Below are positions 1,921-45,089 of a stretch of 64,000 bases of DNA, piece after piece. Both the position numbers and the translations under genes were made by a program. Source of the stretch: Massilia mucilaginosa (lineage in GTDB: Bacteria > Pseudomonadota > Gammaproteobacteria > Burkholderiales > Burkholderiaceae_D); NCBI RefSeq assembly GCF_011682145.1, contig NZ_WHJH01000001.1, forward strand, positions 372,001 to 436,000, given 5' to 3'. The notes under the pieces were generated by a model. That model did no database searches and had not been told where the DNA came from. It saw only the letters and a list, made by a program, of their open reading frames with translations. Position 1 is the first letter of the stretch. Every line of letters begins with the position of its first letter.

Positions 1921-1924
1921 ATCC

Positions 1925-25468: not shown

Positions 25469-26920
25469 ATGAGCGACGAACTGGTACGTGCAACGACAAG
25501 CCTGTGTTCGACCTGCAAACGCAGCGTCGACGCTACCATCTGGCGCAGCGAGGGCCGCGTGGTCATGCGCAAGCGCTGCCCGCAGCACGGCTCCGAAGAA
25601 GTCATCGTCTCGTCCAACGCCGCGTGGTACGACGCCACGATGAACGAGGCCCCGATCCTCACGCCGCCCTCCGGCGCGGCGCCGGCCAGCCAGGGCTGCC
25701 CGTTCGACTGCGGCCCCTGCACCAGCCACGAACAACAGGTCCTGCTGCCGATCGTGCCGATCACCTCGGCCTGCAATCTCGATTGCCCGATCTGCTACAC
25801 GCATAACCGCAACGAAGGCGCGTTCCACATGTCGCAGGACCAGCTGCGCGCCATCCTCGGGCACATGCGGCGGGCCGACCCGAGCAACCGCATGATCAAC
25901 CTGACCGGCGGCGAGCCGACCCAGCATCCCGATTTCGAGCGGCTGGTGGAGCTGTGCCACGCCGAAGGCATCAACCGCATCACCATCTCGACCCACGGCC
26001 TGCGCTTTCTCAAGGATGAATGGCTGCTCGAACGGCTTGCGGCGCTGGACGCGCGCATCGTGCTGTCGTTCGACTCGTTCACGCCGGGGACGAATATCGA
26101 CATGTTGGGCGGGAATTTCTACCAGGCGAAAATGCGGGTACTGGCCCTGCTCGAAAAGTACAAGGTCGACACCACCCTGCTGCCGGTGCTGGCGCGCGGC
26201 AGCAACGACCATGAAGTGGGCGCGTTCGTGAGGCTGGCGCTCGAAAAGGACTTCATCCGCAGCGTCGAACTGCACACGATGACCTTCACCGGCCAGGGCG
26301 GCTCGCGCTTCGACCGGCGCGGCCGCTATACCACCTACGACGTGCTGGCCGACCTGGAACAGCAGACCGCCGGCGCGCTGCGCATCAGCGACTTCGTGCC
26401 GTCGCCGTCGAGCCATCCGATGTGCTACCTGATCACCTACATGCTGCGCCTGGACGACGGCCGCTGGCTGCCGTTCACCCGCTTCATGGAACGCGCCGAC
26501 CTGCGCGCCCTGCTGACCGGCACCCTGTACCTGGAGCCAACGCCGCAGGTGGAGCTGCGCCTGCAGGACGTGATCACGCGCCTGTGGGCCGGCGAGATGG
26601 AGAGCCCCGACAGCGACATGATCCTGGCCACCCTCAAGGGCCTGCTGGCGCGCATGTTCGCACCCGGCCTGTCGACCGAACAGCGCATGCGCATCGGCGA
26701 GCAAAGTTCGAAAGCGATCTACGTGCACTCGCACATGGATGAAGAAACCTTCGACACAGACCGCATACGCCAGTGCTGCGTGGGCATCCGCGAGCCGGAC
26801 GGACGCAACGTGCCTTCCTGCGCCTACAACATCCTGTACCGCGACCGCGACACGCGCTTTTCGGTGGCGCCGGGCGCACCGGTAGCCACCCTGGGCAGCG
26901 GCAGGCTGACCGTCGCATGA
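25469..26920 (+). CDS. MJ0619-like radical SAM protein 1
   Basis: A 483-residue protein. An N-terminal zinc-ribbon-like part has C13, C16 and C37. Next comes GCPFDCGPCTSHEQQ (C77, C81, C84), then the radical SAM cluster motif CNLDCPIC (C102-x3-C106-x2-C109), a GGEPT SAM-contact motif, and a C-terminal cysteine region (QCCVG, NVPSCAYN). This arrangement is that of the MJ0619-like group, which includes pterin methylases and tetraether lipid synthase. Chemistry on an unactivated carbon is likely; substrate is unknown. It heads a four-gene coupled unit. Confidence 0.8.
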   Translation: MSDELVRATTSLCSTCKRSVDATIWRSEGRVVMRKRCPQHGSEEVIVSSNAAWYDATMNEAPILTPPSGAAPASQGCPFDCGPCTSHEQQVLLPIVPITSACNLDCPICYTHNRNEGAFHMSQDQLRAILGHMRRADPSNRMINLTGGEPTQHPDFERLVELCHAEGINRITISTHGLRFLKDEWLLERLAALDARIVLSFDSFTPGTNIDMLGGNFYQAKMRVLALLEKYKVDTTLLPVLARGSNDHEVGAFVRLALEKDFIRSVELHTMTFTGQGGSRFDRRGRYTTYDVLADLEQQTAGALRISDFVPSPSSHPMCYLITYMLRLDDGRWLPFTRFMERADLRALLTGTLYLEPTPQVELRLQDVITRLWAGEMESPDSDMILATLKGLLARMFAPGLSTEQRMRIGEQSSKAIYVHSHMDEETFDTDRIRQCCVGIREPDGRNVPSCAYNILYRDRDTRFSVAPGAPVATLGSGRLTVA

Positions 26921-27081
26921 ACGACCGGCACGACATCCTGCGCGCGCTCGACCTGCCCGAGGAAGCCATTCCGCTGTTCCTCGCACACATCGCACAGTTT
27001 TGCCAGGACCACGGCGGCCAGCGCCGGTATGACGAGCTGCTTGCCCTGCTGGCGCGCTACCAGGCGGCAGTCGACCAGTGA
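26917..27081 (+). CDS. Small 54-residue protein in radical SAM operon
   Basis: The ATG overlaps the stop of the radical SAM gene (ATGA), and its stop overlaps the next start (GTGA), so it is a coupled gene and not a gap. The protein is helical (residues 3-20 and 22-51), with PLFLAHIAQFCQDHGG and RRYDELLALLARYQ, and has one cysteine. No family is known to me. It may be a small partner of the radical SAM enzyme. Confidence 0.65.
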   Translation: MNDRHDILRALDLPEEAIPLFLAHIAQFCQDHGGQRRYDELLALLARYQAAVDQ

Positions 27082-27743
27082 GATACAACGGCTTGCAGCT
27101 GGTGATCGGCCTGGCCGTGCGCAAGCTCGATGACGCGTGGTTCAACCGCTTCCACGACGCGCTGGTGCTGGGTGCGATCCGCGAAGACGTCAGCTGGCTG
27201 CCGCGCCGCAAACAGATCTGGGAGCACTGGTCGCTCAGCCACTTCGCCGGCCGCCAACTCGCTGGCGGCTTCATTCCCTTCCTGACGGCCAGCGCTCCGG
27301 CCAGGGCGCAGGAATATGTCGACCGCGCAGTGGCCGCATGGCGCGCCGGCCAGCACGCGCGCGCCTTCGTGCAGCTGGGGATGGCCTCGCACCTGGTGAT
27401 CGACATGGCCTGCCCGGTCCACGCCAGCCGCGTGGCGCACCTGACCGACGGCTACGAATGGTATGTCGAAGCCAATGGCGCGACGCTCGCGGCCCTGCCC
27501 TTCGACGTGCCGCGCCATTATGCCAGCGCGCATGTCGCCGCCGCCGGCCTGGCCGCCTTCACGCAACGCTTCGCGCCGGACCGCACCAACCACCACTGGG
27601 GGCGCCTGCTCAAGCGCCTTGGCCTGCGCCGCTCGCTCACGCGCAGCGAATTCGCCGCCCAGGCCGAACAGATCATCCCAACTGCCGCCGGCCACTTGGC
27701 AGCTGTCTACCTTACCTTCATCGACGCGACCCGACCCTCTTGA
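27078..27743 (+). CDS. Zinc-dependent phospholipase C-like protein
   Basis: A 221-residue all-helical protein starting with GTG at 27078, overlapping the previous stop. Histidines and acids are spaced as in the zinc phospholipase C/P1 nuclease fold: HDALVLGAIREDVSW, WEHWSLSHF, MASHLVIDMACPVHASRV (compare HxxxD and PxH of the fold) and a final NHHWGR. There is no signal peptide. In this locus it may act on a lipid head group, but catalytic competence is inferred from motif spacing only. Confidence 0.65.
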   Translation: MRYNGLQLVIGLAVRKLDDAWFNRFHDALVLGAIREDVSWLPRRKQIWEHWSLSHFAGRQLAGGFIPFLTASAPARAQEYVDRAVAAWRAGQHARAFVQLGMASHLVIDMACPVHASRVAHLTDGYEWYVEANGATLAALPFDVPRHYASAHVAAAGLAAFTQRFAPDRTNHHWGRLLKRLGLRRSLTRSEFAAQAEQIIPTAAGHLAAVYLTFIDATRPS

Positions 27744-28744
27744 AAAAAATCCTGTTCGCCGTGCTGTTCGCGCTGACCGTCTACCTGACCGCGCGCTTTT
27801 TCTCGCATGCCAGCGGCGCCAGCCTGGGCGGCGTGCTGGCTCTGATCGGCACCATTCCACTGCCCCTGTGGCTGGGCCTTGCCGCCCTGTCCTGCCTGTT
27901 CTATATGCTGGACTGGATCCGCCTGCGCAGCATGCTCGCGGTGCTCGGCCATCCGCTACGCTTTGCGCAAGGCCTGCGCCTGACTTGCGTCAGCTACTTC
28001 GTCACCAGCATCACGCCCAGCGCCGAACTGCACACACCCGCCATGATGTTCGTGCTCGGACGCCAGGGCGTGCCAATGCCGCATGCGCTGGCGGCCTCGG
28101 TCAGCAAGAGCATCTACATGACCTTGTGGATTTGCCTGGTGTCGTGCGTCACCCTTACCTTCGGCCACGCGATTGCGCTGCCGGCGCCCTTGCAGGTCGG
28201 CCTGCCGCTGCTCACCGCGCCGCTCTTGGGCATTGCGCTGCTGCTTGCGCTGATGGCGTTCTTTCCGGGACCGGTGATGCGCTGGACCGAACGGCGCGCC
28301 GGCAGCATGAAGGATGGCGGCCTGTGGCAAAAGGCCCTGCTCGGCGTCGGCCAGAGCGCGCATGCCATATCGGCCATCGGCAAGTCGACCGACGTGCAGC
28401 ACCTGGTGTGCCACCTGGCGTCGGTGATTTTTTTGCTGACCTACGTGGCGATCGGGTCGCTGCTGGCGACCCACTTCGGCTTTGCGCTGACCTGGCTGCA
28501 AGCGCTGACCATCTTCTCGACCAGCCTGATGATCGCCTACCTGGCGCCGGTGCCGGGCGCGATCGGCGTGGCCGAGGTGGCGACCAGCTACATGCTCGAT
28601 CCCGCGCTCACGCCGCAGGGCATGGCCGTCGCGGTGACCTTGCGCGTCCTGTGCTGGTACTTGGTGGCCGTTCCCGGGGCGGTGGTGCTGGCGCGCGAGT
28701 TCCGGCGCGCGGGCGCGTGGAAGCTGCCCAAGGTCTTCAGCTAG
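27740..28744 (+). CDS. Flippase-like integral membrane protein (LPG synthase TM / UPF0104 family)
   Basis: A 334-residue protein with about eight membrane helices, starting at TTG 27740 overlapping the previous stop (TTGA). The segment SYFVTSITPSAELHTPAMMFVL and the C-terminal PVPGAIGVAEVATSYML are characteristic of the lysylphosphatidylglycerol-synthase TM domain (YbhN/AglD-like) family. Members flip or transfer lipid-linked molecules. In this locus it is a good candidate for moving or loading the product at the inner membrane. Confidence 0.75.
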   Translation: MKKILFAVLFALTVYLTARFFSHASGASLGGVLALIGTIPLPLWLGLAALSCLFYMLDWIRLRSMLAVLGHPLRFAQGLRLTCVSYFVTSITPSAELHTPAMMFVLGRQGVPMPHALAASVSKSIYMTLWICLVSCVTLTFGHAIALPAPLQVGLPLLTAPLLGIALLLALMAFFPGPVMRWTERRAGSMKDGGLWQKALLGVGQSAHAISAIGKSTDVQHLVCHLASVIFLLTYVAIGSLLATHFGFALTWLQALTIFSTSLMIAYLAPVPGAIGVAEVATSYMLDPALTPQGMAVAVTLRVLCWYLVAVPGAVVLAREFRRAGAWKLPKVFS

Positions 28745-29273
28745 CGGTGCTTCGCACGGTGCGATTCCAGAGCCAGCGCGCCGCCTGCAATTGCGCCAGC
28801 ATCAGCGCCATATTCAGCACCCGTACCGGCCAGCCTGATGGAAGTAAGCCCGCCAGCGGGTCCCACGGGCGAAACGCCAGGTTGACGTTCATACTCTCGG
28901 GTGTGAACGCCTGGCTGAGTGCAATGAGCAGCTGGTAGATCGCCAGCGCTACCCATGGAATGGCCGCCGGCATGCGCTTGCCGCGCCAGGCCAGCGCCCC
29001 CAGCACCGGCGCCGATGCATGCAGCAGGAACGAGGCGGCCGAGGTATGCCCACCGGCCGCCACATGCAGCACGTAGGCCGGCAAGGCGATGGCGCCCTGG
29101 CACAGGAAACCGGTGACAATCAGCGGCGCGGCATTGGCGATCAGTCCCAGTGCCAGCATGGCGCTGGTGACGTGGCACATCCATAAAAGCTCCGGCGCCA
29201 GCCCATCCTGCGTCTTTTGCACCGCAAGGATGGCCAGCAACAGCATCATGCAGACGCCGCCGGCACGCTTCAT
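28737..29273 (-). CDS. Small polytopic membrane protein, last gene of the minus operon
   Basis: A 178-residue protein with five to six hydrophobic helices. The ATG at 29273 overlaps the stop of the SDR gene (ATGA). Its 3' end overlaps the convergent flippase-like gene by 8 bases. No family signature is evident. Position as the last coupled gene suggests a role in membrane insertion or transport of the product. Confidence 0.65.
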   Translation of the reverse strand: MKRAGGVCMMLLLAILAVQKTQDGLAPELLWMCHVTSAMLALGLIANAAPLIVTGFLCQGAIALPAYVLHVAAGGHTSAASFLLHASAPVLGALAWRGKRMPAAIPWVALAIYQLLIALSQAFTPESMNVNLAFRPWDPLAGLLPSGWPVRVLNMALMLAQLQAARWLWNRTVRSTAS

Positions 29274-29971
29274 CCCAGCCCGCCCGTAAGCGGGAACTGG
29301 GCGCCGTTCAGGTAAGTGTTTTCGAGCGCGAGCCAGCGCAGGCCGCGCGCGGCCTCCAGGCAGGTGCCGGTGCGGCCGAGCGCGGAGTAGCGCCGGTACG
29401 ATTCGCGCAGCTTCGGGTCGAGCGCTTGCGCAATGCCGCCATCGAGCACGCCCACCACCGCCAGGTTGACCAGGATGCCCTTGGGGCCGAGCTCCTTGGC
29501 CAGCGCCATGGTCAGGCCCCACATGGCGGCCTGGCTGGCTGCGTAGTGCGCGGGCGCGGGCACCGGCTGCAAGCCATCGAGGGCGGCGACCAGCACCAGC
29601 GCACCGCGCAGGCCGCGCCGCTCCATCTGCTGCGCGCACAGAAGCGCGGCGCGGCCGTGCACCGCATGCACCGCGTCCCACGACGCCGCCGTCAGCGCGC
29701 CGACCGAGGCGATCGGCGCCACGCCGGCGCAGTGAATCACCACGTCCGGCAGGCGGTCGTCGCGCGCGAGCGCATCGAACAGCACGTCCACCGCGTCGGC
29801 CTGCCCGAAATCGGCCGCGTAGGCCGGGAATCCGAGTTCGTCGCCGAGGGCGGCGGCAAGCTCCGTGCGGCGGCAGTAGGTGAAGGCCACGTCGGCGCCG
29901 CTGCGTTTCAGTTCGCGCAGCAGGGCCGAGCCGAGGGCGCCGCTGCCGCCCAGTACAAGTACGCGTTTCAT
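29270..29971 (-). CDS. SDR-fold protein without catalytic residues
   Basis: A 233-residue Rossmann-fold protein. The N-terminal nucleotide motif is present (VLGGSGALGSAL), but the active site is altered: in HYAASQAAMWGL the tyrosine is kept while the lysine is glutamine, and the serine position upstream is alanine (VLVAALDG). Sequence around the site (APAHYAAS, LAKELGPKGILVN) shows kinship with the SDRs at 31266 and 44349. It may bind NAD(P) or ACP substrate without normal SDR catalysis, or work as a partner subunit. Coupled on both sides by ATGA overlaps. Confidence 0.75.
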   Translation of the reverse strand: MKRVLVLGGSGALGSALLRELKRSGADVAFTYCRRTELAAALGDELGFPAYAADFGQADAVDVLFDALARDDRLPDVVIHCAGVAPIASVGALTAASWDAVHAVHGRAALLCAQQMERRGLRGALVLVAALDGLQPVPAPAHYAASQAAMWGLTMALAKELGPKGILVNLAVVGVLDGGIAQALDPKLRESYRRYSALGRTGTCLEAARGLRWLALENTYLNGAQFPLTGGLG

Positions 29972-31266
29972 TGAAGGTCCCACAGGAAGTCGAGCGCCTC
30001 GCGCAGCGCGTGCGCGCAGGCCAGCAGTTCGTCGTCGGAAATCGTCAACGATGGCTGCACGCGCAGCACCTGCCACGCGTGGCCGCAAATCTGCGAGATG
30101 TAGCCGGCCTTGTACAGCCGGTGCACCAGCAGCATGCCGATGGCCGGCTGCGCCGCCAGTTCGGGCACGCCGAGGTAGTCGAACTGGTAGCAGGGATGAT
30201 CCGGGGCTTCCAGCTCGATGCCCAGCATCAGGCCGTCGCCGCGGATCGCCTTGACCAGTGGCGAGGGCAGGACGAATTCTTCCAGGGCCTCGCGCAGCAG
30301 GCGGCCCTTGCGTTCCACATCGGCCAGCATGGCATCATCGAGCAGGTCGAGCGCCGCCAGTCCGGCCACGCAAGCGAGCGCGTTGCCGCTGAAGGTGGAC
30401 GCATGCGCCTCGGCCAGCGCGAACTTGCCGTACACGCCGTCAAAAATCGGGCGCCGCGTGAGCATCACCGACAGCGGCATCAAGCCGCCGCCCAGCGCTT
30501 TGCCGAGGGTGATGACGTCGGGCCGGCGCGGCCAGTCCTCGCTCGACAAAAAGCGTCCGGTGCGTCCGAGGCCGGTCTGGATTTCGTCGGCCACCAGCAG
30601 CACGCCCCGCTCACCCGTGCCGTGGCACAGGCGCGCCAGATACGCCGCGTCAGGCAGGCGCACGCCGGCTTCGACCTGGATCGGTTCGAGCACGATGGCG
30701 GCGAGCGACGGATCGGCCAGTGCGTTGTCGAGCGCCTCCATGTCGCCGAACGGCAGCGCGTCGACCATCGGCAAGTGCGGACCGAAAATGTCGCGGTACG
30801 GGCCGGCCTGCATCATCGCCACGCTGCCGAAGGTGCAGCCGTGGTAGGCGCCCTGGACGCAGGCGATGCGCGGCCTGCCGGTGGCGCCGCGCACCAGCTT
30901 GAGCGCCGCCTCCACAGCCTCGGTGCCGCCGCTGGCGAAAAACGCCGCGTCGTAGCCGGTCCGTTGATACAACCGGCTGGCCAGTAAACCAGCGTAGGGG
31001 CTGATGCCGGACGGATAGAACGACGGCGCGCGGCTATTGAGGAAGTTCATCAGCGCCGCCTCGATGGCCGCCGGACGATGGCCGAACGCCTGCGTGCCCC
31101 AGCCGGCCAGCAGGTCGATGTACGGTTTGCCGTCGCTGTCGATCAGGTGGCCGTGCTCCACCCGCTCGAGCAGATAAGGTTCGCTGCTCAGGCGCGCGCG
31201 CATCGACACCAGCGGATTGACGAAAGCGCGAAAACCGTCGTAGCCCTCGTGCAGGAGCGGGTCCAT
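29968..31266 (-). CDS. Class III PLP-dependent aminotransferase 1
   Basis: A 432-residue fold-type I aminotransferase. PLP contacts are visible: GGTEAVEAALKL (phosphate), [19 protein letters not shown] (D227) and TLGKALGGG (K256, Schiff base). Class III enzymes transfer amino groups to or from omega-amines, aldehydes and ketones. The ATG at 31266 overlaps the previous stop (TGATG). In this locus it may put an amino group on an acyl chain or release it as an amine. It is similar to, but clearly distinct from, the second aminotransferase at 33079. Confidence 0.85.
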   Translation of the reverse strand: MDPLLHEGYDGFRAFVNPLVSMRARLSSEPYLLERVEHGHLIDSDGKPYIDLLAGWGTQAFGHRPAAIEAALMNFLNSRAPSFYPSGISPYAGLLASRLYQRTGYDAAFFASGGTEAVEAALKLVRGATGRPRIACVQGAYHGCTFGSVAMMQAGPYRDIFGPHLPMVDALPFGDMEALDNALADPSLAAIVLEPIQVEAGVRLPDAAYLARLCHGTGERGVLLVADEIQTGLGRTGRFLSSEDWPRRPDVITLGKALGGGLMPLSVMLTRRPIFDGVYGKFALAEAHASTFSGNALACVAGLAALDLLDDAMLADVERKGRLLREALEEFVLPSPLVKAIRGDGLMLGIELEAPDHPCYQFDYLGVPELAAQPAIGMLLVHRLYKAGYISQICGHAWQVLRVQPSLTISDDELLACAHALREALDFLWDLQ

Positions 31267-32057
31267 CACAGGCCTCCGTCGAAGGTCAGGCGCGCGCCGC
31301 TCATGAAGCTGTTCTCGTCCGATACCAGCCAGGTGACGAAAGCGGCGGTTTCTTCGAGCGTGGCGGTGCGCCCCAGCGGGCAGTGCGTGGTGTAGTCGTC
31401 CAGCCGGTACTGGGGCGCCTGCTGGCCCATGCCCGCTTCCAGCAGGCCGGCCGACAGGTCATTGACGGCGATCCCGTAGCGCCCCACCTCCTTGGCCAGC
31501 GCGCGGGTGAAGCCCTGCAGGCCGGCCTTGGCCGCCGCGTAATGCACGGGCGCCTCGACGATCCGCTCCCCGGCAATCGAGCCGATATTGAGGATGCTCC
31601 CTTTCTTGGCCCGCAGCATGGGCCGCAGGGCGGCGCGCGAAAAGATGTACGCGCCTTTCAGGCAGGTATCGAGCACCAGGTCCCAGTCGTCTTCTTCCAG
31701 CAAGGCGATCGGCAGCACCTGCATGACGCCGGCGTTGTTGACGAGGATGTCGAGCCCCTCCCATTCGGCGACGATGGCGTTGACGGTGCTGCGGGCGTGG
31801 GCCGCGTCGGTAACCGATCCCTTGAACACCAGCGGCTCGGCGCCCAGCTCGCGCAGCAGGCCGCGGGTGACTTCGACCTGCTCATCGTCCTTGACGTAGG
31901 TGAATGCCACGCGCGCGCCGGCGGCGGCGAAGGCCAGGCAGATGGCGCGGCCCAGGTTGCGCGAGCCGCCGGTCACCAGGCAGCGTTTTCCCGCCAGCCG
32001 CAATGGCGGCGCGGAGGTGTCGGAGTCAGTCACAGGGTAATCCGTTTCATGGTTCAT
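31266..32057 (-). CDS. SDR oxidoreductase, FabG-like
   Basis: A 263-residue short-chain dehydrogenase: TGGSRNLGRAI cofactor motif, NNAG, the catalytic serine in NIGSIAG and APVHYAAAK with Tyr and Lys. An 18-20 residue tail precedes the fold. Close kinship to the SDR at 44349 (APVHYxAAK, ALAKEVGRYGI) indicates duplication within the locus. Expected role: NAD(P)H-dependent ketone reduction on an ACP-bound chain. Its ATG overlaps the stop of the radical SAM gene (ATGA). Confidence 0.85.
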   Translation of the reverse strand: MNHETDYPVTDSDTSAPPLRLAGKRCLVTGGSRNLGRAICLAFAAAGARVAFTYVKDDEQVEVTRGLLRELGAEPLVFKGSVTDAAHARSTVNAIVAEWEGLDILVNNAGVMQVLPIALLEEDDWDLVLDTCLKGAYIFSRAALRPMLRAKKGSILNIGSIAGERIVEAPVHYAAAKAGLQGFTRALAKEVGRYGIAVNDLSAGLLEAGMGQQAPQYRLDDYTTHCPLGRTATLEETAAFVTWLVSDENSFMSGARLTFDGGL

Positions 32058-35495: not shown

Positions 35496-35499
35496 GGCG

Positions 35500-37315: not shown

Positions 37316-38457
37316 GGCAGCTCCACGCGGACAATCCCGGCAAGGCCCGGCGCGCTGGCGGCGAGGCCGATGGCCGAACGGTGATCGGATGCTTCGGCCC
37401 GCAGGATCGGGCGCAAGGGACCGGGCGCGGCGGCGCGCAAGCGCGCCACCGGCGGCAAGTGCTGGCGTTGCAGCAGCTCTGCCAGCGCGATGGCTTGAAC
37501 AACTGAAGTGGCGGCGCCGATTTGTCCCATGGCGCTCATGATACAACACAGGGGCGCGCGGGCGCCGGTGATCCGGGCCACAACCTCGCGCTCGGCCGCG
37601 TCGAATCCCGGCAGCGCCAGGCCGCAGCCATCGACGGCGTCGCCGGGGCGCGCGAGCATGCGCACAAGGCGCGCCAGCAGCGCCGGTTGGGGCTCGCCTT
37701 TTTCGCCATCGGCGCCGTCAAGCGCTTCGATGAAAGCATGCGCGGGGCCGCTTCGCTGCAACACCAGGGCGGCGGCGGCTTCGCCGGGTACGAAGCCCTG
37801 CGCGGCGATGTCGTACGGCGCCGCCAGCACGGTCGATACGCAAGAGCCGCGCGCGGCCAGTTCGACCAGCGTTTCCGGCTCGACCAGGCTATCGTAGCCC
37901 ACCACCAGCGCCACATCGACGGCGCCGGCGGCCAGCGCGCGGATGGCACCGGCCAGCGCCTGCGCGCCCGCATTGGCGCCGCCGTAGGTCGCGCCTTCGC
38001 CGCGCGCGCCCAGTTCCTGCGCGGCGATCGCGTGCGCATTGTTCGACAGATGCTGCAAGATCCAGAACGGATGCAGCAGCGCCAGGCCCCGCTCCCATGC
38101 CGCCGCGCCATCGGCCCGCTGATGCTCGAAAGCGGGCATCAGGTCGTCCCAGTGCGCGCGCAGGCCGCCGTAGCCGAAGAACAGCCCTACCCTGTCGCCA
38201 CCGGCCACGCCGGCATCAACCATCGCCTCGGCCGCCACTTCCACCGCGTACAAGCCCATACGGCGCAGGAAGCGCGCATGGCGCGATGGCGCCGGCGGCG
38301 CACCAATGGTGGCGGCCAGCGTGCAGGCGTAGCTGCGCGCATCGAAGCGCGCGTTGGGCTGCGCCGCGCGTTCGCCGGCCAGCAGGCGCTCGATGACCTC
38401 GTCGATGCCTGAACCGAGCGGCGTGCGCCATGCGCGACCTGTCAGTGCCGCCTTCAT
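37312..38457 (-). CDS. Ketosynthase-like protein without active site (chain-length-factor type) 2
   Basis: A 381-residue thiolase-fold protein related to beta-ketoacyl synthases. All three catalytic positions are lost: the nucleophile segment reads GATYGGANAG with no cysteine, the first His motif (NAHGT) is replaced by CGLALPG, and the second reads SAMGQIGAATS with Gln for His. This is the pattern of KS-beta/CLF partners. It directly follows the active ketosynthase at 38454 (ATGA overlap), so they probably form a heterodimer that sets chain length. Confidence 0.8.
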   Translation of the reverse strand: MKAALTGRAWRTPLGSGIDEVIERLLAGERAAQPNARFDARSYACTLAATIGAPPAPSRHARFLRRMGLYAVEVAAEAMVDAGVAGGDRVGLFFGYGGLRAHWDDLMPAFEHQRADGAAAWERGLALLHPFWILQHLSNNAHAIAAQELGARGEGATYGGANAGAQALAGAIRALAAGAVDVALVVGYDSLVEPETLVELAARGSCVSTVLAAPYDIAAQGFVPGEAAAALVLQRSGPAHAFIEALDGADGEKGEPQPALLARLVRMLARPGDAVDGCGLALPGFDAAEREVVARITGARAPLCCIMSAMGQIGAATSVVQAIALAELLQRQHLPPVARLRAAAPGPLRPILRAEASDHRSAIGLAASAPGLAGIVRVELP

Positions 38458-39722
38458 GCGGGCCTTCCGAGAATCAGGGACACGTTCTGGCCGCCGAAGC
38501 CGAACGAATTGCTCAGTACCGCGTCGACCTTCGCCGCACGCGGCGCTTTGATGACGTCAACCTCGCATTGGGGGTCCGGGTCGCGGTGGTTGGCCGTTCC
38601 CGGCAGCAGATTGCGTTCGAATACGAGCAGGCAGGCGGCCGCTTCGATCGCTCCCGACGCCGCCATCAAATGTCCGATGGCGCCCTTGATCGAGCTCACA
38701 GGCACCGCTGCGGCGCCGAAAACGGCGGCGATGGCGCGCGCTTCGGCCACGTCGTTGAGCGGCGTGCCGGTGCCGTGCGCGTTGATGTAGCCGATGCCGG
38801 CGGGCGCCAGCCGCGCGCGCGCCAGCGCCAGTTCCATTGCCCGTTGCGCGGCGGCGCCGTCCGGCCGCGGCGCGGTGACGCGGTAAGCGTCCTGCGTGCT
38901 GCCATATCCGAGCACCCGGGCCAGCACGCGGGCGCCACGGCGGGCGGCCCGCTGCTCCGATTCGATCACGAACATGGCGCCGCCCTCGCCGATGACCAGG
39001 CCGTCGCGGCGCAGGTCGAACGGGCGGCAGGCGTCGCTGTCGTTGCGCGGCGACGGCGCGCCGAGGCGCGACATGCCGCCAAGGCCGAACGGATTGACCA
39101 TCGAATCGGCGCCGCCGCACAACAGGATGGATGCGGCCCCTCGCTCGATCAGCGATGCCGCGTGGGCAATCGCCAGGCCACCGGCGGCGCAGGCGGAGGC
39201 GTTGACGACAACCTGGCCGTGAAGGCCGAACACGTCGCCGACCAGGCGCGCGCCGAGGTCGACGTCGGAGCGGAAGCGAATGCCGTCATGCCCGCCGGCC
39301 GCCCAGTCGATTGCCTGGCCGTTGAACATCGGGCCAAAATCATCGAGGAACGCCTGCTCCAGTCCAAGCGCCATCACCAGTCCCGCTTCCTCCTCAGCCT
39401 TACCGCAGCCGGCCATGCGCCACGCTTCGACGGCGGCCAGCAGGGCGAACATGCATTTACGGTCGCGCCATGCGCCGGCGCGTTCGTACTCGTCGAGCAC
39501 CGATTCGGCAAGGCCAAGGTCGCCGAGATGAGCGCGCAGCCAGTCACGCCCGATGCCACCCCCGGCCACTTCGCAGGCTACGCGGGTATCGAAGGCGGAC
39601 GCGTCGAAGGAACGGACCGGGGCGATGCAACTGCGTCCGGCGGCCAGGCCGTCGAGCAAGGCGGGCACACCGACCCCGAATGCGCTGACCGCGCCAAAGC
39701 CCGTGATCACCGCGCGCGTCAT
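38454..39722 (-). CDS. Beta-ketoacyl-ACP synthase (KS) 2
   Basis: A 422-residue FabF-like condensing enzyme with a complete triad: C178 in NASACAAG, H316 in NAHGTGTPLND, and K346/H351 in KGAIGHLMAASG. It should perform decarboxylative Claisen condensation of malonyl-ACP with the acyl chain. It pairs with the inactive homologue at 37312. The ATG at 39722 overlaps the previous stop (ATGA). Confidence 0.9.
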   Translation of the reverse strand: MTRAVITGFGAVSAFGVGVPALLDGLAAGRSCIAPVRSFDASAFDTRVACEVAGGGIGRDWLRAHLGDLGLAESVLDEYERAGAWRDRKCMFALLAAVEAWRMAGCGKAEEEAGLVMALGLEQAFLDDFGPMFNGQAIDWAAGGHDGIRFRSDVDLGARLVGDVFGLHGQVVVNASACAAGGLAIAHAASLIERGAASILLCGGADSMVNPFGLGGMSRLGAPSPRNDSDACRPFDLRRDGLVIGEGGAMFVIESEQRAARRGARVLARVLGYGSTQDAYRVTAPRPDGAAAQRAMELALARARLAPAGIGYINAHGTGTPLNDVAEARAIAAVFGAAAVPVSSIKGAIGHLMAASGAIEAAACLLVFERNLLPGTANHRDPDPQCEVDVIKAPRAAKVDAVLSNSFGFGGQNVSLILGRPA

Positions 39723-40735
39723 GCCAGGCTCCCGAAATGAGCGACACCCAGGCCGCCGTCGATACCGGCGTTCAAGACGATAACGCGCCGGCAGCGGCAC
39801 TGGCGTATCAGGTCGAGCGCCACGCACCAGGCCAGCGCGGGCGCCGCCGCCAGGGCATCGCCGAGGCACAGGCTGACGTCGAGCGCTTCGCCATGTCCAA
39901 GCCGATTGCGCACCTCGGCGCCCCACGGCGCAATAAGGACAATGGTGTCGTCGCGCGCTTCGGTCAGCGACAAGTCCGGATTGCGCTGCCAGGCGCGCGC
40001 GCTGTGGAAGCTGACGGCGTCCAGCGTCGCCAGCGCGCCATCGGCGGATGCGGACAAGGCGAGCAGGCCCGCGCCTTCGGCCGGAACGAAGCCGCGTGCG
40101 GGGTAGCCAGCGGCGTCGAGTTGGGTCCAGCTGACCGGATGCAGGGCCGAGTCAGCGCCGCCGGCCAGCGCCGTATCGCATTCGCCCGAGGCGACCAGCC
40201 AGTGCGCTTCGCTCAATGCGGCCACCGTGCCCGTGCCGCGCGAGTAAAAGGCGCCATTGGGGCCACCAGTGCCGTTCAGGATCGCACCGTGGCAGAGCGT
40301 GAAGTTGTTCATCAGCTGGAATGCGAACAGCGGATTGCACGCTGCCAGACCGGCGCCGCCGAAGCGCTCCAGCGAAAATTCATGATCGACGATGCTGGCC
40401 GCCAGCATGCGCGTCAGTTCATCCATGGCGCAGCCGGACGCGCCCACGCCCAGGTACAGGGCGGCTTGCTCGCGCTGCTGCGCCGTCCAGCGCGCGTCGT
40501 TCAGCGCCAGGCGCAGGGCGACCGCTGCCAGCCGCGCCGGATGCGCCATCAGTTTGCGGGCGCGCGCATCGACATCGATATCAGCCGCAATTGCAGGCAC
40601 TTCGGCCGCCAGCACGCTGCCATGGGTCGCCTGAAGCTGGCGGCTGGGGGCAAACCCCTCGAAGCCGGCCAGTCCGCGCCAGTCGAAGCCGGATGCGCTG
40701 ACGGCCGCCGCGCCGGATATATATACCTGCCTCAC
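39719..40735 (-). CDS. Ketosynthase-like protein without active site (chain-length-factor type) 1
   Basis: A 338-residue ketosynthase homologue starting with GTG at 40735, overlapping the KS 1 stop (GTGA). The cysteine region reads NGTGGPNGAFYSRG with no cysteine. The segments that should carry the two histidines (IVLIAPWGAE and CLGDALAAAPA) do not. It is also about 60 residues shorter than a full KS. It probably forms a heterodimer with the active enzyme at 40732. It has diverged strongly from the other inactive homologue. Confidence 0.8.
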   Translation of the reverse strand: MRQVYISGAAAVSASGFDWRGLAGFEGFAPSRQLQATHGSVLAAEVPAIAADIDVDARARKLMAHPARLAAVALRLALNDARWTAQQREQAALYLGVGASGCAMDELTRMLAASIVDHEFSLERFGGAGLAACNPLFAFQLMNNFTLCHGAILNGTGGPNGAFYSRGTGTVAALSEAHWLVASGECDTALAGGADSALHPVSWTQLDAAGYPARGFVPAEGAGLLALSASADGALATLDAVSFHSARAWQRNPDLSLTEARDDTIVLIAPWGAEVRNRLGHGEALDVSLCLGDALAAAPALAWCVALDLIRQCRCRRVIVLNAGIDGGLGVAHFGSLA

Positions 40736-41934
40736 GCGCAGCGCCTCGCCACCAGGCTGCAATTGGCGCCGCCGAAGGCAAACGCGTTGACCAGGGCCGC
40801 ATTGATGTTCGAGCGGATTGCACTGCCCAGCACATGCGGGATTGCGCAGGCCGGATCGGGTTGGGCCAGGTTCGCGGTCGGCAGCACGATGCCCTGCTCC
40901 AGCGCCGCATGCGCGCACAGAAAACCCAGCGCGCCCGCCCCGGCGATCCAGTGGCCGAGCGCACCTTTGACCGAACTGACGTGGGCGGCGTCCAGGCTTG
41001 CACCCAGCACGCGCCGCAGCGCCAGCGCTTCCACCGCGTCGTTAAGCGGCGTCGAGGTGCCGTGCGCCTGGACGTAATCGACCGCATCGAGTCCTGCGGC
41101 GGCAAGCGCGGTGTGCATGGCGCGCATGGCGCCGCCCCCCTGCGGGTCGGGTGCGGTCAGGTGGTGGGCATCGAGGCTGCGGCCTTCGCCGGCCAGTTCG
41201 ACCGTGGCAGTCCCGCGTTCGCGCGACAGCACCACCATGGCCGCGCCTTCGCCGACCACGAACCCGTCGCGCCGCACGTCGAACGGGCACGACACGCCGC
41301 GCGCGCTCAATGCGCCGACGCGGCCAAAGCCGGCCAGCATCATCGGATCGACGTCGGCGCCCACGCCACCGCACAAGGCAACATCGCATACGCCGAGGCG
41401 GATCGCCCGCGCCGCTTCGGCAATCGCGCTCGCGCCCGAGGCGCAGGCCAGCGAGATCGTCACCGCCGGGCCGTGGGCGCCGTAGTCGAGCGCGAGCGCC
41501 GAGGCGACGGCGGCCGGCGAAATGATGGAAGCGTCGAATTCGGCCACCAGCGCCGCCGCCTTGACGCCGAACTGCGCATGGTCGAAGCGCGCCCCGCCGC
41601 CGGCGCCACGGGTCAGTCCATGCAAGGTGGCGAATGGCGCGCGGCCCGATTCCGCGCCGAGGAAGATGCCGAGGCGTTCAGGCGCGACATCGACGCCCGC
41701 GCCCTGCCACGCTTCGCGCGCGGCGACCCTGGCCAGCGCCAAGCGGCGGTCGCCGGTGTGGGTAAAGCCGTCGATTTCGGCGCCGGCCGTGGACGGAAAA
41801 CCGGTGACGTCGAAGCCGGCCACCTGCCCGATGGCGCTGCGCCCGGCGGCCAGCGCCTCCAGCGAGGCGGGCCAGTTGGCACCCAATGCCGTGATGGCGC
41901 CGACGCCACGCACGAACACCCTTGGCTGCGTCAT
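40732..41934 (-). CDS. Beta-ketoacyl-ACP synthase (KS) 1
   Basis: A 400-residue FabF-like enzyme with C164 in SLACASGASA, H291 in QAHGTSTPLND, and K323/H328 in VKGALGHWIAGAG. The triad is complete. It follows the FabZ-like gene by ATGA overlap and precedes its inactive partner. Having two active ketosynthases, each with an inactive partner, suggests either two substrates or two chain-length stages. Confidence 0.9.
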   Translation of the reverse strand: MTQPRVFVRGVGAITALGANWPASLEALAAGRSAIGQVAGFDVTGFPSTAGAEIDGFTHTGDRRLALARVAAREAWQGAGVDVAPERLGIFLGAESGRAPFATLHGLTRGAGGGARFDHAQFGVKAAALVAEFDASIISPAAVASALALDYGAHGPAVTISLACASGASAIAEAARAIRLGVCDVALCGGVGADVDPMMLAGFGRVGALSARGVSCPFDVRRDGFVVGEGAAMVVLSRERGTATVELAGEGRSLDAHHLTAPDPQGGGAMRAMHTALAAAGLDAVDYVQAHGTSTPLNDAVEALALRRVLGASLDAAHVSSVKGALGHWIAGAGALGFLCAHAALEQGIVLPTANLAQPDPACAIPHVLGSAIRSNINAALVNAFAFGGANCSLVARRCA

Positions 41935-42398
41935 GGTTCCTCGGCCGAACCGGTGAGCCAGATATTGAGCACCTCGCGGCGCCGCGCCAGCAGCTTGGGA
42001 TTGGTCACGCGGGCAAAGGCGAAAGCCAGTTCGGCCTCGGCGACCAGTTTGCCGTCCACCCGCGCCATGGCACGCACCTGGCCGCCATCTTCGTGCACCA
42101 CGATGCCGTGGCATTCGAGTTCCATCTTGTCGCCGGCGCGCACCTGGTGCCGGAATTTGGCGCGGTCCACCGTGACCAGCAGCGCATGCAGGTCGTGGCG
42201 GCCTTGTTCGCGCATGCTCGCTTCGACCAGCACGCCGCCCAGCTGCGCCATCGATTCGATGATCATCGCGCCGGGCATGATGGGATGGCCCGGAAAATGG
42301 TCGGCAAAAATATCGTCCGACAGCGACACGCATTTGACTCCCGACGCCAGTTGCGGCGGCACAAGCGCCGTGATTTTATCGAGAAGTATGTATCGCAT
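41931..42398 (-). CDS. 3-hydroxyacyl-ACP dehydratase, FabZ-like
   Basis: A 155-residue hot-dog-fold protein with HFPGHPIMPG (H34) and E48 in AMIIESMAQ, the FabZ active pair. It removes water from 3-hydroxyacyl chains on the ACP. The ATG at 42398 was chosen; an upstream GTG (42404) would add two residues. It is the first gene of the 15-gene minus operon, divergent from the radical SAM gene at 42526. Confidence 0.88.
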   Translation of the reverse strand: MRYILLDKITALVPPQLASGVKCVSLSDDIFADHFPGHPIMPGAMIIESMAQLGGVLVEASMREQGRHDLHALLVTVDRAKFRHQVRAGDKMELECHGIVVHEDGGQVRAMARVDGKLVAEAELAFAFARVTNPKLLARRREVLNIWLTGSAEEP

Positions 42399-42525: not shown

Positions 42526-44349
42526 ATGGAATGTACCAGCTGCGACACGAGCACCGTGCGCAAGGATCGCGAGCACACCTTCTTCATGCACGAGATGGCC
42601 ATTTGCGGCGGCTGCACCGCGCCGATCGAAGCGCGCGTGGTACTGCGCGACGATGGCGTGGTGCGCCTGATCCACTGCAACCAGTGCGGACCTTCCGAAC
42701 AGATGGTGTCCGATGACGCCAAGGGCTGGATGGCGCTCTTCCTGGCGCGCGGCCAGGTCGATCCGGGCAAAGAAGGCGACCACTATTTCAAGCACACGAC
42801 ATCGACCTGTCCGGGATGCCTGGCGCTGCTGCCGGCCGACGTGGTGATCCGCGACGGCAAAGTCTACTTCGTGAAGAACTGCGAGAAGTGCGGGCCGTCC
42901 GAGGCGCTGGTGTCGGAAGACGCGGCCTACTACGTGGACGCCTACTCGTACGCGCGCGCCGGCACCGAGCCGCTGGTATTCGCCACCGAAGTGGAAAAAG
43001 GCTGTCCGACCGACTGCGGCACCTGCGGCGACCATGAACAGCACACCTGCCTGCCGATCATCGAGATCACCGATTACTGCAATCTCGAATGCCCGGTCTG
43101 CATCGTCAACAACACCAACGCGTATCACCTCTCGAACGAGGCGTTCACGCGCATGATCGACACGCTGGTGCGCAACGAGGGCCAGGTCGAGTCGATTGCG
43201 CTGTCGGGCGGCGAGCCGACCAGCCACCCGCGCCTGATGGAACTGATCGCGATCGCCACGCGCGAGGAAATCGGCCGCATCGTCATCATCACCAACGGCT
43301 TGCGCCTTGGCCGCGACCGCGCCTTTGCCGAGAAAATCAAGGCCAGCGGCGCCTACATCGCATTGCAGTTCGACGGTTTTACGGCCGACACGCACGAAAA
43401 AATCCGCGGGCGCGACCTGTGCGACGAGAAAAGCGCGGCGCTCAGGATGCTCAAGGACCTCAACATCCCGACGCAGCTCATTTTCGTGGCCGCGCGCGGC
43501 GTCAACGAGCACCAGATTGGCCAGGTGGTGGAGATGTTCCTCTCCGAAGACCACTTCCTGTCGCTGAACTTCCAGCCGGTGGCGTTTACCGGCGCGGGCG
43601 GCGGGCAGTTCGCGCACGACCCGATGGACCGGCTGACGATTCCGGGCGTGATCAAGGCGATCGAGGAGCAGACCAACGGCAAGCTCAAAGTGAGCGACTT
43701 CGCACCGCTGCCCTGCTCCCATCCGCAGTGCGTCTCGCTCAGCTACCTGCTGCGCATGAACGACGGCAGCCACATTCCGTTCGGCCGCTTTGTCGACTTC
43801 CGCACCCACGGCACCTTGCTGCGCTCGTCGGCCACCCTGGGCGCCTCGCCCGAGATTCACGATGCGATGAGCGACGTGGTGCACGATGTGTTCGCGCGCC
43901 AGGACGAGATCGAGCGCTCGGCCGATATCCTGGCCGCCCTGCGCCGCACCATCGACGTGATGTTCCCTAACCGTCCGGTCAGCGCCAAGGAAGCGATTCA
44001 CCTGGGCGAGCAGCAGGCCAAGTCGATCTTCTTGCACCACTACATGGACCGCCACGACTTCGACCTGGAACGGCTGCGCAAGTGCTGCCACCATTATCCG
44101 CAGGTGGACGGGCGCATCATGCCGGCCTGCGGCTTCAATATGTTCCACCGGGGCGCGGCCAAGGGGCCGGAAACCGAACTGGCCGCATGGGGCAAGAAGC
44201 CCTGGACCACGGACGCGCCGGTGCAGATCGTGCAGTTCCACCGCACCGACACGCGCCAGGCGCTGACCGGGATCGGTGTCGACGAAACCCCGGCGCGCGC
44301 GCCGCATTCGATCGGCCTTGGCGGCGGCAAACCAGTGGTGCTCAAATAA
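42526..44349 (+). CDS. MJ0619-like radical SAM protein 2
   Basis: A 607-residue protein. The N-terminal 130 residues hold two zinc-ribbon-like modules, each C-x2-C ... C-x2-C followed by GPSE (C27/C30/C51/C54 and C95/C98/C119/C122). Then comes GCPTDCGTCGDHEQHTC (C160, C164, C167), the radical SAM motif CNLECPVC (C185, C189, C192), GGEPTSHP, and a C-terminal KCCHHYP and PACGFN region. This matches the MJ0619/tetraether-synthase-like architecture more fully than the copy at 25469. It may methylate or join carbon chains. TAATG overlap to the SDR that follows. Confidence 0.85.
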   Translation: MECTSCDTSTVRKDREHTFFMHEMAICGGCTAPIEARVVLRDDGVVRLIHCNQCGPSEQMVSDDAKGWMALFLARGQVDPGKEGDHYFKHTTSTCPGCLALLPADVVIRDGKVYFVKNCEKCGPSEALVSEDAAYYVDAYSYARAGTEPLVFATEVEKGCPTDCGTCGDHEQHTCLPIIEITDYCNLECPVCIVNNTNAYHLSNEAFTRMIDTLVRNEGQVESIALSGGEPTSHPRLMELIAIATREEIGRIVIITNGLRLGRDRAFAEKIKASGAYIALQFDGFTADTHEKIRGRDLCDEKSAALRMLKDLNIPTQLIFVAARGVNEHQIGQVVEMFLSEDHFLSLNFQPVAFTGAGGGQFAHDPMDRLTIPGVIKAIEEQTNGKLKVSDFAPLPCSHPQCVSLSYLLRMNDGSHIPFGRFVDFRTHGTLLRSSATLGASPEIHDAMSDVVHDVFARQDEIERSADILAALRRTIDVMFPNRPVSAKEAIHLGEQQAKSIFLHHYMDRHDFDLERLRKCCHHYPQVDGRIMPACGFNMFHRGAAKGPETELAAWGKKPWTTDAPVQIVQFHRTDTRQALTGIGVDETPARAPHSIGLGGGKPVVLK

Positions 44350-45089
44350 TGGGGATGCTCGACGGACGGACCGCATTGGTCACCGGCGGCTCGCGCGGCC
44401 TGGGGCGCGCCCTGTGCATGGCACTGGCGCGCGAAGGCGCGAACGTCGCTTTCAATTATTCGCGTTCGGTGGCGGAAGCCGAGGCGGTGCTGGCCGCGCT
44501 CAAGGAACTGGGCGTGAAGGCGTGGGCGTTCCAGGTGTCGGTGCTGGACAAGGCGGGCCTGCAGGGCATGGTGCGGGCCATCGAGCAGGATGCGGGGGCG
44601 ATCGATATCCTGATCAATAACGCCGGCATCGGCCAGGTGGTGCCGCTCGCGCTGATGGAGGAAGAAGACTGGGACCGCATGATGAACACCAACGTCAAGG
44701 GCGCCTTCCTGACCACGCAGGCGGTGCTGCGCGGGATGATCCACCAGAAGCGCGGACGCATCTTGAATATCAGCTCGCTGGCGGGCGTGAAGATGATGCA
44801 GGCGCCGGTGCACTACAGCGCGGCCAAGGCGGCGCTCAAGGGCATGACGGAGGCACTGGCGAAGGAAGTGGGCCGCTACGGCATTACCGTCAACTGCCTG
44901 GCGCCGGGCGTGCTCGATGAGGGCGTGAGCGGCAATGTGCCGGCGGCGAAGATGACGGAATACGTGCGCCATTGCGCGCTGGGGCGCCTGGGAACGGTCG
45001 ACGAGGTGGCGGAAGCGGCGGCGTTTTTCGTGTCGGACAAGAACAGCTACATGAGCGGGGCGACCGTGGTCATCGACGGCGCGGTTTGA
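44349..45089 (+). CDS. SDR oxidoreductase, FabG-like
   Basis: A 246-residue SDR with TGGSRGLGRAL, NNAG, NISSLAG and HYSAAKAAL (Ser, Tyr, Lys all present). It is a close relative of the SDR at 31266 and more distant from the FabG at 36581. Starts inside the radical SAM stop (TAATG). Probably reduces a keto group on an ACP-bound or released intermediate of this locus. Confidence 0.87.
   Translation: MGMLDGRTALVTGGSRGLGRALCMALAREGANVAFNYSRSVAEAEAVLAALKELGVKAWAFQVSVLDKAGLQGMVRAIEQDAGAIDILINNAGIGQVVPLALMEEEDWDRMMNTNVKGAFLTTQAVLRGMIHQKRGRILNISSLAGVKMMQAPVHYSAAKAALKGMTEALAKEVGRYGITVNCLAPGVLDEGVSGNVPAAKMTEYVRHCALGRLGTVDEVAEAAAFFVSDKNSYMSGATVVIDGAV

What the first reader, a model, noticed from the sequence alone, without database searches (positions are those of the whole stretch)
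25469..45089. Undescribed lipid/polyketide locus with two KS/CLF-type pairs and three radical SAM enzymes
Sequence shows a coupled set of 21 genes: FabZ-like, KS, inactive KS, KS, inactive KS, FabG, nitroreductase-like, ACP, membrane protein, two class III aminotransferases, radical SAM, SDRs, with two further radical SAM genes on the flanks. Type II PKS and aryl-polyene loci have KS/CLF/KR/DH/ACP but no such radical SAM set. The ladderane candidate clusters of anammox bacteria combine radical SAM and FAS genes but have other content. The product is probably an aminated, radical-modified acyl chain.
Basis: partly seen in the sequence, partly recalled or inferred. Interest (0 to 1): 0.92.

Follow-up and report, generated by a model that had tools for sequence, protein, structure and literature searches.

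The report
Conserved lipid cluster with paired tetraether-synthase relatives
A 20-gene bacterial cluster combines its own small fatty-acid synthase with two relatives of the archaeal enzyme that welds lipid tails together; its core recurs in several bacterial phyla, and what it makes is not yet known.

Summary
Window 25469-45089 carries 20 intact genes: FabZ, two KS/CLF pairs, FabG, a nitroreductase-fold protein, ACP, membrane proteins, two class III aminotransferases, SDRs and three radical SAM enzymes. All 20 recur in the same order, under purifying selection, in 5 of 5 fetched same-genus relatives.

The main correction: the two flanking radical SAM enzymes belong to the tetraether lipid synthase (Tes, GDGT-MAS) family. 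The TesB model matches 7tom over its full length and the cysteine pattern is retained, though both score below NCBI's Tes cut-off. Core genes (FabZ, CLF, KS, FabG, NTR, ACP, SDR) accompany Tes genes in 18 of 79 GTDB loci, from records labelled with nine phyla; both TesA- and TesB-type genes are seen within the stretch in 10 of these 18. KS-linked Tes rows lie within one supported branch and split into TesA and TesB groups. In 8 of 8 genomes taken as anammox no Tes-family gene was found, so this is not the ladderane cluster.

Best reading: a dedicated type II synthase builds an acyl chain that the Tes pair joins carbon to carbon, with amination here. The product is unmeasured. No description turned up in ten paper searches.

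The parts
25469..26920 (+). TesA: radical SAM protein of the Tes/GDGT-MAS family, 483 aa
   Evidence: PF04055 78.8 bits, PF23545 58.9 bits; PDB 7tol E 4.1e-61; NF045702 Tes 241 bits, below cut-off 450
27078..27743 (+). zinc-dependent phospholipase C-like protein, 221 aa
   Evidence: PF00882 29.4 bits over cut-off 26.8, partial match; conserved in 5 of 5 same-genus loci
27740..28744 (+). flippase-like membrane protein (LPG_synthase_TM); start codon (TTG) uncertain
   Evidence: PF03706 71.6 bits over cut-off 33.4; start codon checked
28737..29273 (-). small conserved hydrophobic protein, function unknown
   Evidence: no Pfam match above its cut-off and no NCBIfam match; homologues beside Tes genes in other loci
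29270..29971 (-). SDR3, short-chain dehydrogenase with degenerate catalytic Lys (YxxxQ)
   Evidence: PF13561 100.4 bits; Q at the Lys column in 13 of 17 rows
29968..31266 (-). AT2, class III aminotransferase
   Evidence: PF00202 252.9 bits; PigE model 297.6, below cut-off 850
31266..32057 (-). SDR2, short-chain dehydrogenase
   Evidence: PF13561 186.4 bits
32054..33103 (-). radical SAM/SPASM protein
   Evidence: PF04055 75.9 and PF13186 24.7 bits
33079..34446 (-). AT1, class III aminotransferase
   Evidence: PF00202 302.5 bits; nearest solved chain 4ppm ('Aminotransferase'), then putrescine aminotransferase
34443..35495 (-). helical membrane protein (MEM) with conserved His motifs, function unknown
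   Evidence: no match above a cut-off; 48% identical to the L128 homologue; fold model unusable, pLDDT 48
35500..35913 (-). acyl carrier protein
   Evidence: PF00550 37.5 bits; dN/dS 0.01-0.11
35910..36584 (-). nitroreductase-fold flavoprotein (NTR)
   Evidence: PF00881 117.2 bits; PDB matches include enone reductase CLA-ER, E 7e-5, partial
36581..37315 (-). FabG-like ketoreductase
   Evidence: NF009466 233 bits over cut-off 222
37312..38457 (-). CLF2, chain-length-factor-like KS without active-site Cys/His
   Evidence: PF00109 69.4 bits; residues A/C/M/Q at the Cys/His/Lys/His columns
38454..39722 (-). KS2, ketosynthase with Cys/His/Lys/His
   Evidence: PF02801 119.1 and PF00109 95.4 bits; nearest PDB is FabF 1j3n
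39719..40735 (-). CLF1, chain-length-factor-like KS without active-site Cys/His
   Evidence: PF00109 40.9 bits; residues G/A/S/D at those columns
40732..41934 (-). KS1, ketosynthase with Cys/His/Lys/His
   Evidence: PF00109 109.7 and PF02801 92.4 bits; nearest PDB is FabF 1j3n
41931..42398 (-). FabZ-like 3-hydroxyacyl-ACP dehydratase
   Evidence: NF000582 FabZ 113.9 bits over cut-off 113; PF07977 69.5
42526..44349 (+). TesB: radical SAM protein of the Tes/GDGT-MAS family with an extra N-terminal zinc ribbon, 607 aa
   Evidence: PDB 7tol E 1.5e-65; model pLDDT 86.3 matches 7tom, E 1.5e-40, TM 0.67 by query and 0.81 by target; NF045702 271.5 bits, below cut-off 450
44349..45089 (+). SDR1, short-chain dehydrogenase
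   Evidence: PF00106 198.7 bits; dN/dS 0.02-0.05

Best explanation
The locus makes a specialised lipid. A dedicated carrier protein, two KS/CLF pairs, FabG and FabZ build an acyl chain whose length is set by the CLF partners (inferred from type II PKS logic). The nitroreductase-fold protein probably adjusts unsaturation (inference). The two Tes-family radical SAM enzymes then join unactivated chain carbons, most likely two chains tail to tail as archaeal Tes does, giving a dimeric or bipolar (membrane-spanning type) lipid (inferred from homology, not shown). The aminotransferases with SDR2/SDR3 and the SPASM radical SAM enzyme convert a keto or aldehyde group to an amine on this version of the lipid (inference). 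The phospholipase C-like and flippase-like proteins handle membrane acceptors or transport (inference). Shown here: gene content, active-site states, Tes family fold and cysteine pattern, purifying selection, and recurrence of the core with Tes genes in other phyla. Inferred: every reaction step and the product.
For: Tes-family assignment of both flank enzymes: sequence, full-length fold match of TesB, retained cysteine pattern of 7tol. KS active and CLF inactive states kept across loci: of 70 rows 34 are C/H/K/H, 33 lack Cys and both His, 3 have no letter at the Cys column. Core genes with Tes genes in 18 of 79 GTDB loci from records labelled with nine phyla; both a TesA- and a TesB-type gene in the stretch held in 10 of 18 (in one of them, L090, the TesA-type gene belongs to the third-paralogue group, and in L107 TesB is cut). 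TesA and TesB form separate groups (SH-aLRT 99 and 93), and all 36 rows labelled KS-linked plus both window rows lie in one 65-row branch (98). 20 of 20 genes intact, in the same order, dN/dS 0.00-0.25 in 5 of 5 relatives, with tightly coupled joints. Possible membrane-lipid partners: PF00882 and PF03706.
Against: No product was measured. Both Tes proteins score below NCBI's Tes equivalog cut-off, and the TrsS model scores about as well (234 and 288 bits against 241 and 271), so the reaction may differ from archaeal coupling. In 8 of the 18 KS-bearing loci only one type of Tes gene was seen in the stretch held; several of these contigs are short, but L102 shows TesB alone in 21 kb. No acyltransferase, glycerol-ether or thioester-reductase family was matched among the 20 genes, so the link to a glycerol lipid is indirect. 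The phospholipase C match is weak (29.4 bits). Why two Tes proteins are needed is unexplained. Aminotransferases are not seen in the minimal clusters, so amination is not part of the core function.
Confidence: 0.45

Rival explanations
1. The Tes-family pair acts within one chain: radical cyclisation of an ACP-bound polyene or keto chain to a carbocycle, as proposed but unproven for ladderanes, giving a cyclic (here aminated) fatty acid.
For: The core has KS/CLF, KR and DH; no usual enoyl reductase model passes its cut-off among the 25 best NCBIfam models shown for each SDR, so the chain may be polyunsaturated. Radical SAM enzymes near FASII genes were proposed for ladderane cyclisation (PMC2649909, passages and section 9).
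Against: The closest characterised relative joins chains rather than cyclising them (7tol/7tom; PMC8941075 passages). In 8 of 8 genomes taken as anammox, radical SAM genes match the Tes profile only over the radical SAM core, best 61 bits.
Confidence: 0.25
2. A specialised metabolite cluster (secreted amine or pigment-like polyketide) in which the radical SAM enzymes do other chemistry such as desaturation, dehydrogenation or methylthiolation, not membrane-lipid synthesis.
For: PigE is the best NCBIfam model of both aminotransferases, and the nearest solved chain of AT1 is 4ppm, which I recall as PigE. Patchy distribution within the genus, 6 of 17, and in the order, where 11 of 399 genomes have any Tes match at 1e-60.
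Against: Conservation of the core in distant lineages; no Pfam match to a secreted-metabolite exporter, NRPS or type I PKS among the 20 genes; PigE cut-off not met.
Confidence: 0.22
3. The Tes pair makes branched tetraether-type lipids (brGDGT pathway) from ordinary fatty acids, and the KS/CLF genes are loosely linked neighbours.
For: Bacterial Tes homologues have been proposed as brGDGT enzymes (PMC8941075; PMC11868695; passages of both; the second says unconfirmed).
Against: KS, ACP, NTR and FabZ sit with Tes genes together: of 18 KS-bearing loci 15 have ACP, 14 NTR and 14 FabZ, while none of the 61 stretches without KS has an NTR, ACP or FabZ hit at the thresholds used. Most lone homologues fall elsewhere in the tree. 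A carrier protein of its own argues for a dedicated chain.
Confidence: 0.08

Closest known systems
Archaeal tetraether lipid synthase Tes / GDGT-MAS (PDB 7tol, 7tom)
   Same: Full-length fold (TM 0.81 by target, 0.67 by query), radical SAM motif, N-terminal rubredoxin-like Cys pattern, auxiliary Cys motif and C-terminal Cys residues
   Different: 29% identity in the fold alignment; below the NCBI equivalog cut-off; two copies in a cluster with its own type II synthase, in bacteria; TesB carries an extra zinc ribbon
TrsS radical SAM (seleno)protein family
   Same: Same wider family; NF045646 234 and 288 bits
   Different: Below its cut-off of 490; TrsS partner genes were not looked for, and which tree rows are TrsS was not tested
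Ladderane candidate clusters of anammox bacteria and syntenic FASII clusters of Desulfotalea
   Same: FASII genes with a non-canonical KS and a pair of radical SAM genes (PMC2649909, PMC4790861 passages)
   Different: No Tes-family gene found in 8 of 8 genomes taken as anammox; phytoene desaturase, CoA ligase and glycosyltransferase there, not matched here; nitroreductase and class III aminotransferases here, neither word occurs in PMC2649909
Type II PKS, aryl polyene and flexirubin synthases
   Same: KS/CLF, KR, DH, ACP
   Different: KSs are nearest FabF among solved structures; flexirubin SDR model below cut-off; no aromatic-starter genes matched; Tes pair added
PigE aminotransferase (prodigiosin)
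   Same: Best NCBIfam model of AT1 and AT2; nearest solved chain of AT1 is 4ppm, recalled as PigE
   Different: Below cut-off (432 and 298 against 850); no prodigiosin genes seen among the 20
Mss/Ger bacterial membrane-spanning lipid enzymes
   Same: Same class of product proposed (PMC11868695 passages)
   Different: Not compared by sequence here; the cluster has its own synthase

Membership tests
Tes / GDGT-MAS family (fold and sequence family) | Full-length similarity to the solved enzyme, beyond the radical SAM core | tested here: met
   7tol E 1.5e-65 and 4.1e-61; TesB model to 7tom E 1.5e-40, TM by query 0.67, against 0.31 or less for the chains ranked 3-50 shown
Tes / GDGT-MAS family (fold and sequence family) | Cysteine pattern of 7tol: CxxC..CxxH/C, GCPxDCGxCxxH, CxxxCxxC, SHxxC, C-terminal Cys | tested here: met
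   a third paralogue of the genus (L080, G406) and the same-family L079 have lost three of the C-terminal cysteines; ligands were not assigned to clusters
Tes equivalog (GDGT synthesis proper) | NCBIfam NF045702 curated cut-off of 450 bits | tested here: not met
   241 and 271 bits
Tes equivalog (GDGT synthesis proper) | Joins archaeol chains to tetraether | not testable with these tools
   no biochemistry available
Ladderane candidate cluster | Radical SAM enzymes of the same family as in anammox genomes | tested here: not met
   8 of 8 hzsA-bearing genomes searched: best match to the Tes alignment 61 bits, radical SAM core only; genomes unnamed, chosen by PF18582 matches in frames of about 810-845 aa
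Ladderane candidate cluster | Phytoene-desaturase-like gene in the cluster | tested here: not met
   no such family among the Pfam matches of the 20 genes
Type II KS/CLF synthase | Active KS (Cys-His-His) next to a KS-fold partner without Cys, plus ACP | tested here: met
Aryl polyene / flexirubin cluster | Aromatic-starter genes and family-level SDR model (list recalled) | tested here: not met
   FlxB model 224.6 against cut-off 340; no aromatic-starter family among the Pfam matches
PigE | NCBIfam NF053554 cut-off of 850 bits | tested here: not met
   432.4 (AT1) and 297.6 (AT2)
TrsS | NCBIfam NF045646 cut-off of 490 bits | tested here: not met
   234 and 288 bits
Mss/Ger pathway | Homology to Mss and Ger | not tested
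   no reference sequence was at hand

The most novel reading that the evidence does not exclude
The core is an ancient, widespread bacterial pathway to a class of bipolar or cross-linked lipids not yet described, in which the hydrocarbon chain is built de novo on its own carrier protein and KS/CLF and then welded carbon to carbon by a two-component TesA/TesB radical SAM system; in several lineages, this one included, it has gained amination units, yielding amino-bolalipids.
Probability: 0.33. Interest if true: 0.92.

Novelty: new variant of a known kind. Interest (0 to 1): 0.74.

Why it matters
Bacterial Tes homologues have been listed by the hundred as possible brGDGT enzymes without proof (PMC8941075, PMC11868695; passages). 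This work separates a subset tied by synteny and phylogeny to a dedicated type II synthase, which makes their function directly testable: delete one KS or tesB and look for the missing lipid. If the inference holds, it adds a route to membrane-spanning or cross-linked lipids outside archaea, bears on the sources of orphan lipid biomarkers, and supplies new enzymes for joining unactivated carbons. Two host records are not labelled MAG (GR16-43, Polyangium sp. y55x31), so cultures may exist.

Tried and rejected
Ladderane identity: rejected by profile search of hzsA-bearing genomes. The marker PF18582 also rings in many genomes with many copies or other frame lengths; I used 8 of 17 genomes that, by my reading of the listed rows, have one or two matches in frames of about 810-845 aa.

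CLF1 as a bait over 398 phylum genomes: 126 genomes match, but apart from the own genome the 125 others are weak (E no better than 4e-7, 22-47% identity in the rows listed) and uninformative. Third Tes paralogues of the genus (L079-L084): no other cluster genes beside them except generic SDR matches in L079, so not part of this system. Plasmid origin: the cluster DNA has only two plasmid matches, of 36 and 40 bases, and the best-placed plasmid TesB relative is 33% identical.

Fold of the membrane protein: model unusable. Organism name: no 16S found in the assembly, though this search also missed 5 of its 14 control genomes; genome size, GC content and the make-up of its order suggest a betaproteobacterium of the Burkholderiales (inference; GR16-43 appears in the window's order sample). 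Lipid structures in sponge bolaamphiphiles (PMC11767167 passages) suggested an amino-bola product by analogy only.
Full report
What is there. The window lies at G000:C111:372001-436000 of a 7.7 Mb assembly. Between 25469 and 45089 I find 20 genes. On the minus strand, read from 42398 down to 28737, are FabZ, KS1, CLF1, KS2, CLF2, FabG, a nitroreductase-fold protein (NTR), ACP, a helical membrane protein, AT1, a radical SAM/SPASM protein, SDR2, AT2, SDR3 and a small hydrophobic protein. Thirteen of the 14 joints overlap and one has 4 bp (four starts that one search placed off a start codon were corrected). On the plus strand, TesA, a phospholipase C-like and a flippase-like gene lie on one side, and TesB with SDR1 on the other.

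It is real and maintained. Six of 17 same-genus genomes, own included, carry both flank radical SAM genes at full length. In the five relatives fetched, all 20 genes are present in the same order without internal stops, with dN/dS 0.00 to 0.25 in all 100 comparisons. TesB, SDR1, FabZ and ACP are among the most constrained.

The flank radical SAM enzymes are tetraether-synthase relatives. Both carry PF23545 and PF04055 and match the solved archaeal enzyme 7tol (E 1.5e-65 and 4.1e-61). A model of TesB (mean pLDDT 86.3) matches 7tom over 500 alignment columns, TM 0.67 by query and 0.81 by target; 7tol is second, and the chains ranked 3 to 50 reach 0.31 by query (up to 0.64 by target for short chains). 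TesA and TesB retain the cysteine pattern of 7tol. Three [4Fe-4S] clusters and one rubredoxin-like iron are described for that enzyme (PMC11767167 passages); I did not assign ligands to clusters. Against this, both fall short of NCBI's Tes equivalog cut-off (241 and 271 against 450 bits), and the TrsS model scores about as well, also below its cut-off. They are members of the family, not shown to be tetraether synthases.

KS and CLF. Across the KS-fold rows of 24 loci plus the window (70 rows, some contigs present twice), 34 have Cys/His/Lys/His, 33 lack the Cys and both His, and 3 have no letter at the Cys column. Both kinds occur in each of the 24 loci except L105, where only the KS row was caught by the profiles. 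Both window KSs are nearest FabF (1j3n) among solved chains, ahead of the actinorhodin KS 1tqy and of 6kxd (recalled as the ishigamide KS).

A conserved core and add-on units. Eighteen of 79 carry a KS at 300 bits or more; of these 18, CLF-like genes are seen in 16, ACP in 15, NTR in 14, FabZ in 14, SDR1 in 14 and FabG in 11. Of the 61 stretches without KS, none has an NTR, ACP or FabZ hit at the thresholds used; in two of them (L091, L128) KS genes lie just beyond the stretch. Both a TesA- and a TesB-type gene are seen in 10 of the 18 (L089, L090, L092, L097, L098, L099, L101, L105, L107, L134); TesB is cut in L107, and the TesA-type gene of L090 falls in the third-paralogue group. Eight show one type only; several of these are short or end inside the cluster, in Polyangium the second lies about 21 kb away, but L102 shows TesB alone in 21 kb. 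By NCBI labels the 18 come from Myxococcota, Pseudomonadota, Bacillota, Verrucomicrobiota, Planctomycetota, Muiribacteriota, Nitrospirota, Actinomycetota and Thermodesulfobacteriota, plus one KSB1 locus with KS and ACP only. Seventeen of the 18 are MAG contigs by title. One titled Pseudomonadota (L089, G440) turned up in the Myxococcota sample, so titles are not safe; Pseudomonadota is in any case represented by the window and by GR16-43, whose KS genes are in L220. The smallest set with all core functions, in a Firmicutes MAG, is FabZ-CLF-KS-FabG-NTR-ACP-SDR-FabZ2-TesA-TesB (FabZ2 scores 21.3 bits, under the Pfam cut-off of 23). AT1 with the SPASM protein, and a further Tes paralogue with SDR2-AT2-SDR3, recur as units; the latter stands apart from any KS in Polyangium (L227) and a planctomycete (L229) within the 20 kb held. 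Seven of the 18 loci show an aminotransferase in the stretch. No third full-length Tes gene was found in the own genome.

Phylogeny. In a 120-row tree (quick IQ-TREE, SH-aLRT), rows were labelled KS-linked if at least three core families lay within 10.5 kb. All 36 such rows and both window rows lie within one 65-row branch (98) that also holds 17 rows linked to aminotransferase or SDR genes and 10 labelled lone, several of them on short or re-fetched contigs. L102, labelled lone by this rule, sits just outside (66 rows, 86). The 65 rows split into TesB (27 rows, 93), TesA (35 rows, 99, with the third-paralogue group of 10 rows inside, 100) and a small set of 3. Of the 52 rows on the far side, 51 are lone and one (L130) carries only a weak AT hit; two further lone rows (L221) join at the root. 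By label the KS-linked rows are not one clade: 20 changes are needed, against 31.3 for shuffled labels. The two groups repeat much the same order of lineages, which fits one old duplication and joint inheritance (inference; not tested). No archaeal rows were included.

Distribution. In the window's order, 11 of 399 genomes have a Tes-family match at 1e-60, and only the own genome and GR16-43 show two. In a Myxococcota sample, 30 of 282 match at 1e-120 and 11 of these show two or more. In Planctomycetota, 66 of 392 match at 1e-40. Only three to five candidates per genome were scored, so pairs may be undercounted.

Comparison with ladderane clusters. Rattray 2009 (PMC2649909; passages and section 9) and Javidpour 2016 (PMC4790861; passages) describe FASII genes with a non-canonical FabF and a radical SAM pair in Kuenenia; heterologous expression gave no ladderanes and the two radical SAM proteins were not detected. 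Eight genomes with hydrazine synthase alpha matches in frames of about 810-845 aa were searched with the Tes alignment at E 0.001: the best match is 61 bits over the radical SAM core only, whereas the cluster Tes genes of the eleven cluster-bearing genomes score about 305 bits or more. The two systems share a general plan but not the radical SAM family.

How it probably works. The synthase part is inferred to make a chain of set length on the cluster's ACP. The NTR could act on C=C bonds; the solved relatives listed include an enone reductase (CLA-ER, E 7e-5, weak and partial; its fatty-acid substrate is recalled). The Tes pair is inferred to form C-C bonds between chains. AT1 is nearest 4ppm (recalled as PigE) and putrescine aminotransferase, which suggests an aldehyde or ketone substrate; class III-type aminotransferases acting on beta-keto acyl chains are known in lipopeptide synthesis (recalled). 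SDR3 has lost the catalytic Lys in 13 of 17 rows and may be structural. I give the whole mechanism 0.45; that this is a dedicated pathway for a modified acyl chain I would put near 0.85.

Prior description. None of the titles and abstract openings listed describes this cluster, and one search found no paper holding five of its six terms. The library holds open-licence papers only, so subscription papers and preprints were not seen.

Noticed in passing
window 1742-1966 (-): Cobalamin riboswitch (Rfam RF00174, 102 bits), the only Rfam match above gathering score in the window.
   Followed up: no
L079-L084 (G414, G406, G413, G404, G409, G400): A further lone Tes-family paralogue in the same genus and family, about 32-34% identical to TesB; in the rows checked (L079, L080) three C-terminal cysteines are lost; no cluster genes nearby except generic SDR matches in L079.
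   Followed up: partly
L227 and L229: Unit of a Tes paralogue with SDR2-AT2-SDR3, away from any KS within the 20 kb held, in Polyangium and a planctomycete; possibly its own small amination pathway.
   Followed up: partly
L225 and L120: Two Tes-family genes close together, one in a small divergent third group with an L092 row, in a planctomycete and a Campylobacterota-labelled MAG, without KS in the stretch held.
   Followed up: no
L097 14759-18653: Downstream of the Firmicutes minimal cluster are genes with HEPN_Swt1 and Cap4 nuclease domains, defence-like.
   Followed up: no
G589, G604, G721, G734, G480: HZS_alpha domain (PF18582) has 13-16 matches (16 was the number scored) in several planctomycete genomes, in frames of varied and often larger size; its distribution is wider than anammox hydrazine synthase.
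   Followed up: no
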